A program made the position numbers and the translations under genes. The notes under the pieces are model-generated. The model searched no databases. It was not told where the DNA came from and was given only the letters and a program-made list of their open reading frames with translations. Shown here piece by piece: positions 13,143 to 18,487 of a stretch of DNA of 47,040 bases. Source of the stretch: Candidatus Avelusimicrobium aviculae (lineage in GTDB: Bacteria; Elusimicrobiota; Elusimicrobia; Elusimicrobiales; Elusimicrobiaceae); NCBI GenBank assembly GCA_944324655.1, contig CALUXF010000012.1, positions 1 through 47,040 on the forward strand, written 5' to 3'. Position 1 is the stretch's first letter. The number at the start of each line of letters is the position of its first letter.

Positions 13143-14249
13143 ATGTCTTTTCCTTTTTTGCGCCCCACGTGGGCAGAGGTAGATTTAAATAAATTTAAGG
13201 CCAACCTGCTAAAAGTGCGGGATATGGTGGGGCCGGATGTTAAAATTCTGGCTCTTCTGAAGGCCAATGCCTATGGGCACGGCGCGGTGGAACTGGGCAA
13301 ATTCGCCGAAAAAAACTCCCTTTGCCAGTTTTTTGGTGTGGCATCGGTGGAAGAGGGGATGGAACTTCGCCAAGCGGGGCTGCAAATGCCCACATTGGTA
13401 TTAGGCAGCATTTACCCGTTTGAAGCGTTTGAGTACGCCATTAAAAACCGTTTGGCGGTAACCATTGCCAGTATGGACGCGGCCCGCGCGGTGGCGGATA
13501 TCGCGGCTAAGATGGATGCCAAAGCTCTTTGCCATGTAAAGCAAGATACGGGCATGGGGCGCATTGGCACCCGGCGAGGCGGGGTATTACATATTTTGGA
13601 ATTTTTGGATAAAAACCCCCATGTTATATTGGACGGGCTGTATACCCATTTATCCAGCGCGGATTGCGACCCGGACTATACCGAAGAACAAATAGGTTAT
13701 TTCCGTGATACGCTTACCGGGGTCAGCCTGCAGGGGTTGCATATTAACACGTGCCACCTTTCCGCCACGCCGGGCATGATGCGCAGGCCGGATACCTTTT
13801 TTGACATGGTGCGCCCCGGCCATGCGGAGTTTGGGTTGGAAAAAGGGTTTGAGCCTATTCTGTCTTTAAAAACGCGCATTGTGTACGTAAAAGACGTGGC
13901 CGAAGGAGCCAGCCTGAGTTACGGGCGCAGTTTCATTTGCCCTAAAGCCATGCGGGTGGCTACTATCCCGCTGGGATATGGGGACGGATTTTTAAGAAGT
14001 TTATCCAATAAGGCGCAGGTACTGGTGCGCGGGCGGCGCTGCCGGGTGTTGGGAAACATCACCATGGACATGTGCATGATTGACATTACGGACGTTCCCG
14101 GCGCAACGGTGGGGGACGAGGTAACCGTAACCGGCAAGCAGGGGGAAGAAGAAATCCGCTTCAGCGAGCTGGCCCAACTGGCGGGCACGATTGATTATGA
14201 GTTAACCACCCTCATTATGCCCCGTGTGCCGAGGTTCTACAAAGAATAA
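13143..14249 (+). CDS. alr: Alanine racemase
   Basis: A 368-residue fold-type III PLP enzyme that makes D-alanine for peptidoglycan. PLP-binding Lys40 lies in LLKANAYGHG and the second catalytic residue Tyr260 in LSYGRSF. Other signatures are VKQDTGMGRIG, RPGHAEFGLE and NITMDMCMID. Length matches the family. The stop TAA overlaps the mlaE-like ATG by one base (TAATG), so the genes are translationally coupled. Confidence 0.96.
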   Translation: MSFPFLRPTWAEVDLNKFKANLLKVRDMVGPDVKILALLKANAYGHGAVELGKFAEKNSLCQFFGVASVEEGMELRQAGLQMPTLVLGSIYPFEAFEYAIKNRLAVTIASMDAARAVADIAAKMDAKALCHVKQDTGMGRIGTRRGGVLHILEFLDKNPHVILDGLYTHLSSADCDPDYTEEQIGYFRDTLTGVSLQGLHINTCHLSATPGMMRRPDTFFDMVRPGHAEFGLEKGFEPILSLKTRIVYVKDVAEGASLSYGRSFICPKAMRVATIPLGYGDGFLRSLSNKAQVLVRGRRCRVLGNITMDMCMIDITDVPGATVGDEVTVTGKQGEEEIRFSELAQLAGTIDYELTTLIMPRVPRFYKE

Positions 14250-15025
14250 TGTTTACATTAATAGGAAAACACATAGATAATTTACTTACGCAAACCGGCG
14301 GCGCGGCGGAGATGATACGCTCCGTGCTGTTTTGGCTGGGGCGTTCCCGTTTTGAGTTTAAGCAGACGGTGGAACAAAGCGTAAGCATAGGGGTGGATTC
14401 TTTTGGCGTGACGGCGTTGACCAGCTTGTTTACGGGCATGGTGCTTGCTTTGCAGGCGGGAAATACCATCGGCAATATTTTTGGAGACCCTATTTTTGTG
14501 GGCACTATTGTTTCATTTTCCTTAATACGTGAGCTGGGCCCCGTGTTGACCGGGGTGGTTATTTCCGGCCGGGCCGGCGCGGCGGTAACGGCGCACATAG
14601 GCACCATGGCGGTAACGGAACAGCTGGACGCTTTATATACGCTGGGCACCAACCCCACCCGGTATTTGGTTATTCCGCGGTTGTTTGCTTTTTTGCTTAC
14701 CATGCCGGTTTTAACGGTATTTTCCAACGTGTTTGGGGTAATAGGCGGGTATTTGGTGGCGGCGTATGCGCTGGGTGTTCCCGGGGAAGTGTATTTTACG
14801 GATATTACCACCTTTATGGGCGTAAAAGATTTTATGCATGGCTTTATCAAGTCTTTCATTTTTGCGTTTATGATTGCCACCGTATGCTGTTACAAAGGTG
14901 TCAGTACGCGCGGCGGAGCGGAGGGGGTGGGCAAATCCACCACCGGGGCCGTGGTAACCACCATTGTGCTTATTTTGGTGTTGGACTATTTTTTAACGGC
15001 TATTTTAACGGCTTTTGGAATTTAA
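14249..15025 (+). CDS. mlaE: MlaE-type ABC transporter permease
   Basis: A 258-residue permease of the Mla/YrbE phospholipid transport family with five or six membrane helices. The signature LIRELGPVLTGVVISGRAG and the following AAVTAHIGTM are intact. In diderm bacteria this subunit forms the inner-membrane channel with ATPase MlaF and MCE protein MlaD, moving lipids between the two membranes. The gene is flanked exactly so: it overlaps alr by one base, and the ATPase starts directly after its stop. The direction of lipid flow is not told by the sequence. Confidence 0.95.
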   Translation: MFTLIGKHIDNLLTQTGGAAEMIRSVLFWLGRSRFEFKQTVEQSVSIGVDSFGVTALTSLFTGMVLALQAGNTIGNIFGDPIFVGTIVSFSLIRELGPVLTGVVISGRAGAAVTAHIGTMAVTEQLDALYTLGTNPTRYLVIPRLFAFLLTMPVLTVFSNVFGVIGGYLVAAYALGVPGEVYFTDITTFMGVKDFMHGFIKSFIFAFMIATVCCYKGVSTRGGAEGVGKSTTGAVVTTIVLILVLDYFLTAILTAFGI

Positions 15026-15787
15026 ATGATAGAAATTATAGATTTAAAAAAGAATTTTGGCCCCAAGCAAGTGTTAAAAGACGTCAACTTAAAAATAGAA
15101 GACGGCACGGTAACCTGTATTTTGGGCGGCTCCGGCTCCGGCAAAAGCACATTAATAAAGTGTTTGGTGCGTTTGGAGCAGGCCACCGGCGGGCGCATTT
15201 TGGTGGACGGGAAAGACGTTACCAAAATTAACAGCGAAGTAAAACTGGCCGCCATCCGCCGTCATTTTGGGTATTTGTTTCAGGACGGGGCGTTGTTTGA
15301 CTCTATGACCGTGGGGGAAAACGTGGCTTTTGGTTTAAAATATTTAACCGATGTCCCCCCGGCGGATTATGCCAAAGTGGTAAAAGAAAAATTGGCGCTG
15401 GTAGGCTTAAAGGATGTGGAGCATTTAAACCCCAGCGAGCTTTCCGGCGGTATGCGCAAGCGCGTGTCTTTGGCGCGGGTGCTAGCCATCAGCCCCAAAT
15501 GTATTTTATACGATGAGCCCACCACCGGGCTGGACCCTATTATGTCTGACATCATCAGCGAGTTGATATTAGACTTAAAACGCAAACTGGGAGTTACATC
15601 GGTAGTGATTACGCATGATATGAACTCCGCCTTTAAAATTGCGGATAAAATCGCTTTTTTGTATGAAGGACGTATTTTAATGGAAGGTTCTCCGGACGAG
15701 CTGCGCCATACGGACAATCCGTATGTAAAACAGTTTGTAAGCGGCAGCAGCCATGGGCCTATCCAAATGAAAATCATGAAGGATTAA
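15026..15787 (+). CDS. mlaF: MlaF-type ABC transporter ATPase
   Basis: A 253-residue ABC ATPase. Walker A is GGSGSGKST (residues 34-42, Lys40), the signature is LSGGMRKRVSLAR, Walker B is CILYDEPTTGLDP, and the switch His is in VVITHD. The M-R-K-R after LSGG is typical of MlaF/Mkl proteins rather than amino acid importers. It abuts mlaE with no gap and is followed 33 bases later by the MCE gene, giving the order E-F-D. Confidence 0.95.
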   Translation: MIEIIDLKKNFGPKQVLKDVNLKIEDGTVTCILGGSGSGKSTLIKCLVRLEQATGGRILVDGKDVTKINSEVKLAAIRRHFGYLFQDGALFDSMTVGENVAFGLKYLTDVPPADYAKVVKEKLALVGLKDVEHLNPSELSGGMRKRVSLARVLAISPKCILYDEPTTGLDPIMSDIISELILDLKRKLGVTSVVITHDMNSAFKIADKIAFLYEGRILMEGSPDELRHTDNPYVKQFVSGSSHGPIQMKIMKD

Positions 15788-15820: not shown

Positions 15821-17113
15821 ATGATGAAACCAGAAACCAAATTAGGTTTGTTTACAGTAGTAGGGATAGCCGTGTTGGGGTTCTCGCTCTATTTTTTGGG
15901 CGGGCTTTCCGTTACGCGCACGTATAACGTAAACGTTAAATTTCAGGACGTATCCGGCCTGCCGGTAAAAGCTCCCGTAAAACTGGCGGGGGTGGAAGTA
16001 GGTAAAGTAAAAGAAATAAAAATACAAGATGACACCGTCATCGTGGTGGCTGCCATTAACGAAGAAATTCCTTTATACCAAGGAGCGCGTTTTAGCGTGG
16101 TGATGACGGGGATTATCGGTACGAAATATTTAAAAGTGGTGCAGGGAGAGGAGTCCGCCGGTTTGATTAAACCCGGGGAATATGTGGACGGCACGGACGA
16201 AGTCCCCATGGACGTGATGATAGCGCAAACCATGTCCAGCATTAAAGAATTGGTGGACAGCGTACACCAGCAGGGCCAATTTGGGGAAAATCTAAACGCT
16301 TCTTTGCGGGAAGTGCGCCAGCTTTCCGCCAATTTAAACCAAATGGTGGCCTCCATGCGTCCCTATTTAAACAATTCCGTTCAAAATTTGGACCAAATCA
16401 GCGAACAGCTTAAAGACGTGGTGGCCAAGGCGGATAACGTGATGACCAGCTTGGATAACGGGGACGGCGTAATAGGCAGTTTAATTAAAGACCCTAATAT
16501 GAAAGAAGACGTAAAGGAAAGCGTTACTAAGCTGAAAGAAACGATGACGGAAGTAAAAACTTTTGTGGGTAAGATGAGCCGTTTCCGCATTTATTGGGAT
16601 TATGACTTCTTTTATATGCCTTCTTCTCAAATAGCCAGCAGTGATTTGGCTTTGGAAATTTATCCTTCCAGCGGTTACACTTTTTACCGCGCGGGTATTG
16701 CCAACCTGGGAAATGAGGACGACACTCCCGCCAAAGGCGATTATTTGGAACGCAATAAAATAGACCTGCGTTTTGGGTTGTATAATCATTGGGCGTCCGT
16801 TTCCGCGGGGTTGATACGCGGCGCGGGCGGCGTGGCGATGGAACTGCGCCCGTTCTATGACAAAGAATTCTTAAACCGCTTTACCGGCACCGTGGAATTT
16901 ACGGACTGGGGGCGTGACCGCGTCATTAATGACCGCCATTTCAACAGACCCAACTTAACATACGGGGTGGATTTCCGGTTTAACCGGTATTTCTCCGTAG
17001 GGGCTTGGATGCGCGACGCGCTGGAAACCAACGATTTTGCCGTAAAGGCCAATATCTCGTTTAACGACCAGGATATTTCCTCTTTCTTTGGCATGGCTAC
17101 ATTGGCCCGTTAG
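15821..17113 (+). CDS. MCE-family protein (MlaD-like) with long C-terminal beta-rich domain
   Basis: A 430-residue MCE protein. A single N-terminal membrane helix (about residues 9-27) anchors it in the inner membrane, and one MCE domain follows (about 36-115, with V-K-L-A-G-V-E-V-G-K-V). Residues about 130-250 are predicted to be mostly helical (ANLNQMV, QNLDQISEQLKDVV). From about 253 the character changes to alternating, aromatic-rich strands (DLALEIYPSSGYTFYRAG, KIDLRFGLYNHWASVSAGL, TYGVDFRFNRYFSVGAW), like an outer-membrane barrel. E. coli MlaD is only about 180 residues. The protein may span from the inner membrane to the outer. That barrel reading is inference from the strand pattern. 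Confidence 0.85.
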   Translation: MMKPETKLGLFTVVGIAVLGFSLYFLGGLSVTRTYNVNVKFQDVSGLPVKAPVKLAGVEVGKVKEIKIQDDTVIVVAAINEEIPLYQGARFSVVMTGIIGTKYLKVVQGEESAGLIKPGEYVDGTDEVPMDVMIAQTMSSIKELVDSVHQQGQFGENLNASLREVRQLSANLNQMVASMRPYLNNSVQNLDQISEQLKDVVAKADNVMTSLDNGDGVIGSLIKDPNMKEDVKESVTKLKETMTEVKTFVGKMSRFRIYWDYDFFYMPSSQIASSDLALEIYPSSGYTFYRAGIANLGNEDDTPAKGDYLERNKIDLRFGLYNHWASVSAGLIRGAGGVAMELRPFYDKEFLNRFTGTVEFTDWGRDRVINDRHFNRPNLTYGVDFRFNRYFSVGAWMRDALETNDFAVKANISFNDQDISSFFGMATLAR

Positions 17114-17122
17114 GAGTTTTAG

Positions 17123-18487
17123 ATGAAATTTAAAACCGTGTTTGTCTGTCAAAAATGCGGGTATGAATCGGCCAAGTGGTCCGGCCAATGCCCGAAATGC
17201 GGGGAGTGGAATACCCTGGCCGAAGAAGTAAAACAGCAGGAAAGTAAAAAAGAAAAGCGTGTACGTTCGTTTACGGATTTTTCTTCCGAAATCATTAAAC
17301 TTTCCGAAAGCCGCTGCGTTCCCCAAACCCGCATTCCCACCGGCTTGGGCGAGTTTGACCGCCTGCTTGGCGGCGGGCTGGTAAAAGGCCAAATCACGCT
17401 TTTGGCCGGCGCGCCTGGAATAGGCAAAAGCACGCTGATGCTGCAGGTGGCTTCTTCTTTGGCGGATAAATTAAAAGTATTGTATATATCCGGAGAGGAG
17501 AGCATTAACCAAATATCCGGCCGCGCGCAGCGCTTGGGTGTTACCAGCGAAAATATTTTTTTACATTGTGAAACGGACATACAAAAAATCGTACAGGCGG
17601 TGGAGCAGGTTTCCCCAGACGTATTGGTGCTGGACTCTATCCAAACCGTTTATCACCCGGATTTTACTTCCTCAGCCGGAACCGTCGGCCAGGTGCGTGA
17701 ATGCGCCAGCGAGCTGGTGCGCCTGTGCAAGCCCAAAGGCATTATTACGTTTGTTCTCGGCCATGTAACCAAAGACGGAGAGCTGGCCGGCCCCAAAGTG
17801 CTGGAACACATGGTGGACAGCGTGCTTTATTTTGATACGGAAAAAGACAATGTCCTTCGTTTATTGCGTCCGCATAAAAACCGTTTTGGATCTACGGGTG
17901 AAATTGGCCTTTTTAAAATGACGGGCCACGGACTGGAAGGAGTGGAAAACGCCAGCGAATATTTTGCCCAAACTTCTAAAGAGCGCGCTTTAAAAGGCCG
18001 TGCCTATTCGTTGGCGTTGGAAGGAAGCCGCCCCCTGCTGACAGAAGTGCAAGCCTTGGTGAGCCCTACCCATTACCCCTATCCACGCCGGGTGGCTACG
18101 GGGGTGGATTTAAACCGTTGTTTAATGCTTTTTGCCGCTTTGGAAAAACACATCGGCCTGGCCTTGGACAATAAAGACATTTTTGTCAGCCTGGCCGGCG
18201 GCGTAAAATTAAAAGACCCCGCCTTGGATTTAGCCGTCTGCGCGGCGGTTATCAGCTCCTGCAAGGATATTCCCATTGCGCATGACAGCCTTTTTATGGC
18301 GGAAGTGGGCATTTTGGGACAGGCGGCCAAGGTGCCTTTGCTAGATAAACGGCTGGAGGAAGCCCGCCGGCTGGGGTTTAAAAAAGCCTATACGGCGCCT
18401 TTGTCCCGTGCGGAAAAGCGGGATTTAAAAGAGTTGGAAGTGGCGGAACTGGCGGATTTGAATGATTTGTCGCTTCGGCTTCGCTGA
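17123..18487 (+). CDS. radA: DNA repair protein RadA/Sms
   Basis: A 454-residue RadA, a DnaB-like helicase that promotes branch migration in recombination. The N-terminal zinc finger CQKCGYESAKWSGQCPKCGEW is spread over residues 9-30. Walker A is GAPGIGKST (residues 96-104). The RadA-specific KNRFG motif is at residues 252-256. The C-terminal Lon-like domain starts near the KDIFVSLAGGVKL stretch. Length is standard. It follows the MCE gene by 9 bases, so it may be expressed with the Mla genes even though the functions are unrelated. A terminator follows. Confidence 0.97.
   Translation: MKFKTVFVCQKCGYESAKWSGQCPKCGEWNTLAEEVKQQESKKEKRVRSFTDFSSEIIKLSESRCVPQTRIPTGLGEFDRLLGGGLVKGQITLLAGAPGIGKSTLMLQVASSLADKLKVLYISGEESINQISGRAQRLGVTSENIFLHCETDIQKIVQAVEQVSPDVLVLDSIQTVYHPDFTSSAGTVGQVRECASELVRLCKPKGIITFVLGHVTKDGELAGPKVLEHMVDSVLYFDTEKDNVLRLLRPHKNRFGSTGEIGLFKMTGHGLEGVENASEYFAQTSKERALKGRAYSLALEGSRPLLTEVQALVSPTHYPYPRRVATGVDLNRCLMLFAALEKHIGLALDNKDIFVSLAGGVKLKDPALDLAVCAAVISSCKDIPIAHDSLFMAEVGILGQAAKVPLLDKRLEEARRLGFKKAYTAPLSRAEKRDLKELEVAELADLNDLSLRLR

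What the first reader, a model, noticed from the sequence alone, without database searches (positions are those of the whole stretch)
15821..17113. MCE protein fused to a barrel-like C-terminal domain
The MCE gene next to mlaE and mlaF encodes 430 residues instead of about 180. After the MCE domain and a helical stretch, about 180 residues have amphipathic strand patterns like an outer-membrane barrel. One polypeptide could thus reach from the inner membrane to the outer, replacing separate periplasmic and outer-membrane parts (MlaC, MlaA), neither of which is seen here.
Basis: partly seen in the sequence, partly recalled or inferred. Interest (0 to 1): 0.6.

Follow-up and report, generated by a model that had tools for sequence, protein, structure and literature searches.

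The report
Barrel-tailed MlaD lipid bridge, known type
This gene makes a lipid-transport protein predicted to be anchored in both membranes of a gut Elusimicrobia bacterium, an architecture published in 2023 for Veillonella, so it is a real member of a known kind; a useful extra is that a related family carries mlaA, mlaC and an MMPL transporter at the same chromosomal spot.

Summary
Window 15821-17113 encodes a 430-residue MCE protein in an alr-mlaE-mlaF-mlaD-radA run: an inner-membrane helix, an MCE domain, about 120 helical residues, then about 165 residues that AlphaFold2 folds as ten beta strands (pLDDT 74, pTM 0.70). The nearest solved folds are almost all outer-membrane barrels. The genome (Elusimicrobiaceae MAG, about 95% complete) has one MCE gene, no mlaA and no mlaC, but has an Omp85 protein and lpxC.

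This is a new member of that kind.

Two additions: (1) the barrel is spread across the phylum (34 of 37 sampled loci); (2) in one family of the same class the same slot (dnaB-alr-[ ]-radA) holds mlaA-mlaC-MMPL instead, in four genomes, one of which has no MCE gene detected anywhere. That swap suggests the two systems are alternatives. Localisation, oligomeric state and direction of lipid flow are untested here.

The parts
15821..17113 (+). mlaD, long form with C-terminal barrel, 430 aa
15830..15898 (+). N-terminal transmembrane helix, residues 4-26 (inner-membrane anchor, inferred)
   Evidence: AlphaFold2 helix; hydrophobic in all homologues
15917..16147 (+). MCE domain, residues 33-109
   Evidence: PF02470 E 1.3e-16; Foldseek to MlaD structures
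16205..16570 (+). helical linker, residues 129-250; about 18 nm if fully helical and extended (arithmetic)
   Evidence: low model confidence (pLDDT about 25-46)
16574..17071 (+). ten-strand beta-barrel domain, residues 252-417
17072..17110 (+). conserved C-terminal tail after the last strand, residues 418-430, short helix in model
14249..15025 (+). mlaE, ABC permease, 258 aa; start codon overlaps the stop of alr
   Evidence: PF02405 E 6e-74
15026..15787 (+). mlaF, ABC ATPase, 253 aa
   Evidence: PF00005
13143..14249 (+). alr, alanine racemase, conserved upstream neighbour
17123..18487 (+). radA, conserved downstream neighbour

Best explanation
It is a three-gene MlaEFD phospholipid transporter with the long, barrel-tailed MlaD already described from Veillonella parvula. 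MlaE and MlaF form the ABC engine in the inner membrane. MlaD is anchored there by its N-terminal helix; its MCE domain most likely forms a hexameric ring, the helical stretch a tunnel or tether across the periplasm, and the C-terminal ten-strand barrel sits in the outer membrane. Lipid would pass along this bridge without the MlaC shuttle or the MlaA-porin complex, most likely from outer to inner membrane, keeping the outer leaflet free of phospholipid. Shown here: gene order, domains, predicted fold, conservation, absence of mlaA and mlaC. Inferred: membrane location of each end, hexamer, tunnel, direction of transport.
For: Domain content and order. C-terminal domain predicted as a ten-strand barrel whose best solved structural neighbours are invasin/intimin barrels, the designed barrel TMB10 (TM 0.61 by target), FapF, OmpA and OprF. 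V. parvula MlaD has 419 residues, the same domain order and ten strands (PMC10665443). Only one MCE and one MlaE gene in the genome, no MlaA or MlaC. Omp85 and LpxC present, so an outer membrane with lipid A is likely. Barrel domain homologous in 34 of 37 further loci, barrel length nearly constant (153-169) while the linker varies (115-148). 145 of 149 sampled genomes of the phylum have no MlaC and 147 of 149 no MlaA, while 147 of 149 have an MCE protein. In family f8 the same slot is filled by mlaA-mlaC-MMPL.
Against: The full-length model is weak (mean pLDDT 56.5; linker below 50) and was made from relatives within one genus. A monomer model cannot show a hexameric tunnel. The last predicted strand is followed by a conserved 13-residue tail, so a classical C-terminal outer-membrane signal ending in Phe is not seen. 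No TamB was found, unlike V. parvula, where TamB is the functional counterpart. A direct sequence comparison with V. parvula MlaD could not be made. Three short MCE proteins of the phylum lack the barrel without having MlaA or MlaC, so a barrel is not indispensable everywhere.
Confidence: 0.87

Rival explanations
1. The C-terminal domain is an outer-membrane barrel that only anchors or docks the bridge; lipid leaves or enters at its periplasmic face and does not pass through the barrel. (A variant of the main explanation, compatible with it, so its score is conditional on that.)
For: A ten-strand barrel is narrow; Grasekamp et al. state that the predicted V. parvula barrel is too narrow for a phospholipid and that a ring of six barrels seems unlikely (PMC10665443). 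Linker length varies while the barrel does not. Some phylum members dispense with it.
Against: Nothing here separates anchoring from conduction.
Confidence: 0.6
2. The C-terminal domain is a soluble periplasmic beta fold (for example lipocalin- or calycin-like) that binds lipid or an outer-membrane partner.
For: A soluble phycobiliprotein lyase appears at rank 8 in the PDB fold search; the domain is rich in Arg and Asp (9% each); no classical C-terminal outer-membrane signal.
Against: Ranks 1-7 and nearly all others are membrane barrels; strands alternate; glycines and aromatics are conserved; the corresponding V. parvula domain fractionates with the outer membrane.
Confidence: 0.07
3. The system moves another lipid, or moves phospholipid outward; the mla name misleads.
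For: Direction and substrate are not readable from sequence; TamB, a usual outward route, was not found.
Against: V. parvula mutants of the corresponding three-gene system show disrupted lipid asymmetry suppressed by tamB mutations, as expected for retrograde transport (PMC10665443).
Confidence: 0.15

Closest known systems
Long MlaD of the Veillonella parvula MlaEFD system (Grasekamp et al. 2023, PMC10665443)
   Same: Three genes mlaE-mlaF-mlaD; MlaD about 420-430 aa; TM helix, MCE, long helical region, ten-strand C-terminal barrel; no MlaA, no MlaC
   Different: Elusimicrobiota instead of Negativicutes; flanked by alr and radA instead of tolC and tamB; linker about 120 instead of about 150 residues; no TamB found by Pfam
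Escherichia coli MlaFEDB-MlaC-MlaA/OmpC
   Same: MCE domain and ABC core
   Different: E. coli MlaD is 183 aa with no barrel; uses the shuttle MlaC and the outer-membrane lipoprotein MlaA
Mycobacterial Mce1 (8fed/8fef)
   Same: MCE ring followed by long helices forming a tunnel; best fold match of the full model
   Different: Heterohexamer; each chain gives one strand to a small shared barrel (as described in PMC10665443), no whole barrel per chain

Membership tests
MCE / MlaD protein family | PF02470 MCE domain above the curated cut-off | tested here: met
   61 bits against 25.1
MCE / MlaD protein family | N-terminal transmembrane helix | tested here: met
   helix 4-26
Proteobacterial-type MlaD (TIGR04430 equivalog) | score above the NCBIfam cut-off of 135 bits | tested here: not met
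   73.6 bits
Long transenvelope MlaD of the V. parvula type | operon with mlaE and mlaF | tested here: met
Long transenvelope MlaD of the V. parvula type | long helical region between MCE and C-terminal domain | tested here: met
   residues 130-243; placement of low confidence
Long transenvelope MlaD of the V. parvula type | C-terminal ten-strand membrane barrel | tested here: met
   predicted only:
Long transenvelope MlaD of the V. parvula type | mlaA and mlaC absent from the genome | tested here: met
   MAG about 95% complete
Long transenvelope MlaD of the V. parvula type | C-terminal domain located in the outer membrane | not testable with these tools
   needs fractionation
Long transenvelope MlaD of the V. 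parvula type | hexameric tunnel spanning the periplasm | not testable with these tools
   no multimer prediction available
Long transenvelope MlaD of the V. parvula type | sequence homology of the barrel to that of V. parvula | not tested

The most novel reading that the evidence does not exclude
Within the Elusimicrobiota a one-piece trans-envelope MlaEFD bridge and an MlaA-MlaC-MMPL pathway replace each other at the same chromosomal slot, so the two are interchangeable solutions of one task, and an MMPL pump can take the place of the MCE-ABC engine.
Probability: 0.4. Interest if true: 0.55.

Novelty: new member of a known kind. Interest (0 to 1): 0.34.

Why it matters
It extends the barrel-tailed MlaD across a phylum that the main text of the original paper does not mention, supporting the view that the six-part E. 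coli Mla system is the exception. The swap at one locus in a sister family gives a natural comparison: which lipid pathway replaces which, and whether an MMPL pump can do the work of an MCE transporter.

Tried and rejected
MlaC candidate at G000:C2:62855 (14.9 bits): lies in the triosephosphate isomerase gene, rejected. MlaA candidate (12.2 bits, 48-aa frame): rejected. PDB sequence match of the barrel to an antibody VH domain (7jwb, E 8.5e-10): sum of three identical 15.5-bit matches in a tandem chain, rejected as chance. No Pfam family matches the C-terminal domain. A literature search for Elusimicrobia with MlaD and barrel gave one unrelated paper; none held HpnN, MlaA and MlaC together. 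The viral fold library gave general outer-membrane barrels only.

Full report
Observation. Window 15821-17113 (+) encodes 430 residues behind mlaE (14249-15025) and mlaF (15026-15787) and ahead of radA (17123), with alr upstream. The stop of alr overlaps the start of mlaE, and the following gaps are 0, 33 and 9 bases, so the run looks like one operon. Pfam finds one MCE domain at residues 33-109 and nothing in the C-terminal part. Relatives show the organism to be an uncultured Elusimicrobiaceae bacterium of the Avelusimicrobium/Elusimicrobium group.

Structure. AlphaFold2 with 43 sequences of the genus gives a TM helix 4-26, the MCE fold, helices 130-243 and strands 254-265, 272-281, 287-295, 313-321, 325-332, 335-342, 354-362, 378-386, 391-400 and 406-416, plus a small hairpin near 367-374. 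Overall confidence is low (56.5), but the C-terminal domain folded alone reaches pLDDT 74 and pTM 0.70 with the same ten strands. Foldseek against the PDB finds mainly outer-membrane barrels: invasin, designed TMB10, intimin, FapF, OmpA, OprF, OmpM1 of V. parvula, PagL. The full model's best matches are Mce1 and MlaD. In a 35-sequence phylum-wide alignment the alternation of large hydrophobic residues along the predicted strands was 0.38 against 0.21 (SD 0.045) in shuffles, none of 5000 reaching it; the strand limits came from the model, not from this test. Conserved positions in the barrel are largely Gly, Asp, Arg, Trp and Tyr.

Genome context. The assembly has one MCE gene and one MlaE, no MlaA, no MlaC (the only weak match is in tpiA), no TamB by Pfam, but an Omp85 protein and LpxC. 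It is about 95% complete, so single absences carry some risk. But MlaC is also missing in 145 of 149 and MlaA in 147 of 149 sampled genomes of the phylum, while an MCE protein is present in 147 of 149.

Spread in the phylum. Of 37 loci taken from the genome search, 34 carry a C-terminal domain alignable with this one (E from 1e-103 to 3e-8). The barrel has 153-169 residues, the linker 115-148, as expected of a fixed membrane part on a tether of variable length (inference). Three loci from families f11-f13 have MCE proteins of 277-302 residues that end after the helices. They keep the mlaE-mlaF-mlaD-radA order, and those genomes have no MlaA or MlaC hit either.

A swap at the same slot. In family f8 of the same class the slot dnaB-alr--radA-PIN holds mlaA, mlaC and an MMPL-family transporter. 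Genomes G115, G167, G165 and G164 have the whole arrangement; G166 has mlaA alone there; G168 has the trio without these flanks in the stretch read. G115 has no PF02470 match in the whole genome; the other f8 genomes were not searched for it. Two of eight f8 genomes had no MlaA hit. G158 (family f7) has a long MlaD at the usual place and a separate mlaA-MMPL pair elsewhere, so the two can also coexist. This in-place swap supports the view that the systems serve the same task, but does not prove it.

Comparison with what is known. Grasekamp et al. (PMC10665443) described V. parvula MlaEFD: MlaD of 419 residues with TM helix, MCE, a helical region of about 150 residues and a ten-strand C-terminal barrel, without MlaA and MlaC; TMD-MCE located to the inner and barrel to the outer membrane; mutants with disrupted lipid asymmetry; 85% of MlaD homologues long, and barrels inferred in 103 sequences. 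Its main text does not mention Elusimicrobia; its supplements could not be read here. The feature is therefore a new member of a known kind.

What is shown and what is inferred. Shown: genes, domains, predicted fold, conservation, presence and absence of partners. Inferred: membrane location, hexamer, tunnel, retrograde phospholipid transport. Whether lipid passes through the barrel or the barrel only anchors the bridge is open; the latter seems likelier given the narrow ten-strand barrel.

Noticed in passing
L128 2459-6440 (G115), L138 4151-7944 (G167), L141 3530-7354 (G165), L143 6725-10550 (G164): mlaA-mlaC-MMPL sits between alr and radA, exactly where other Elusimicrobiota have mlaE-mlaF-mlaD; in G115 no MCE gene was found at all.
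   Followed up: partly
L124, L125, L126, L127: Families f11-f13 have short MCE proteins (271-302 aa) without barrel at the same locus, often with a second MCE gene elsewhere, and no MlaA or MlaC; what reaches the outer membrane there is unknown.
   Followed up: partly
G000 (whole assembly of the window): No TamB (PF04357) was found although Omp85 and LpxC are present; the outward phospholipid route of this organism is unclear.
   Followed up: no
G011 (same genus, 99% complete): No match to the 430-residue MlaD, only a weaker MCE match (E 4.7e-9); possibly a gap, a broken gene or a divergent copy.
   Followed up: no
L117, L118 (G031, G027); also L114, L116, L119: MlaC-like proteins in genomes that also have the long MlaD; in L117 and L118 the next gene reads like a TolC-type channel, so they probably belong to other export systems (judged by reading).
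   Followed up: partly
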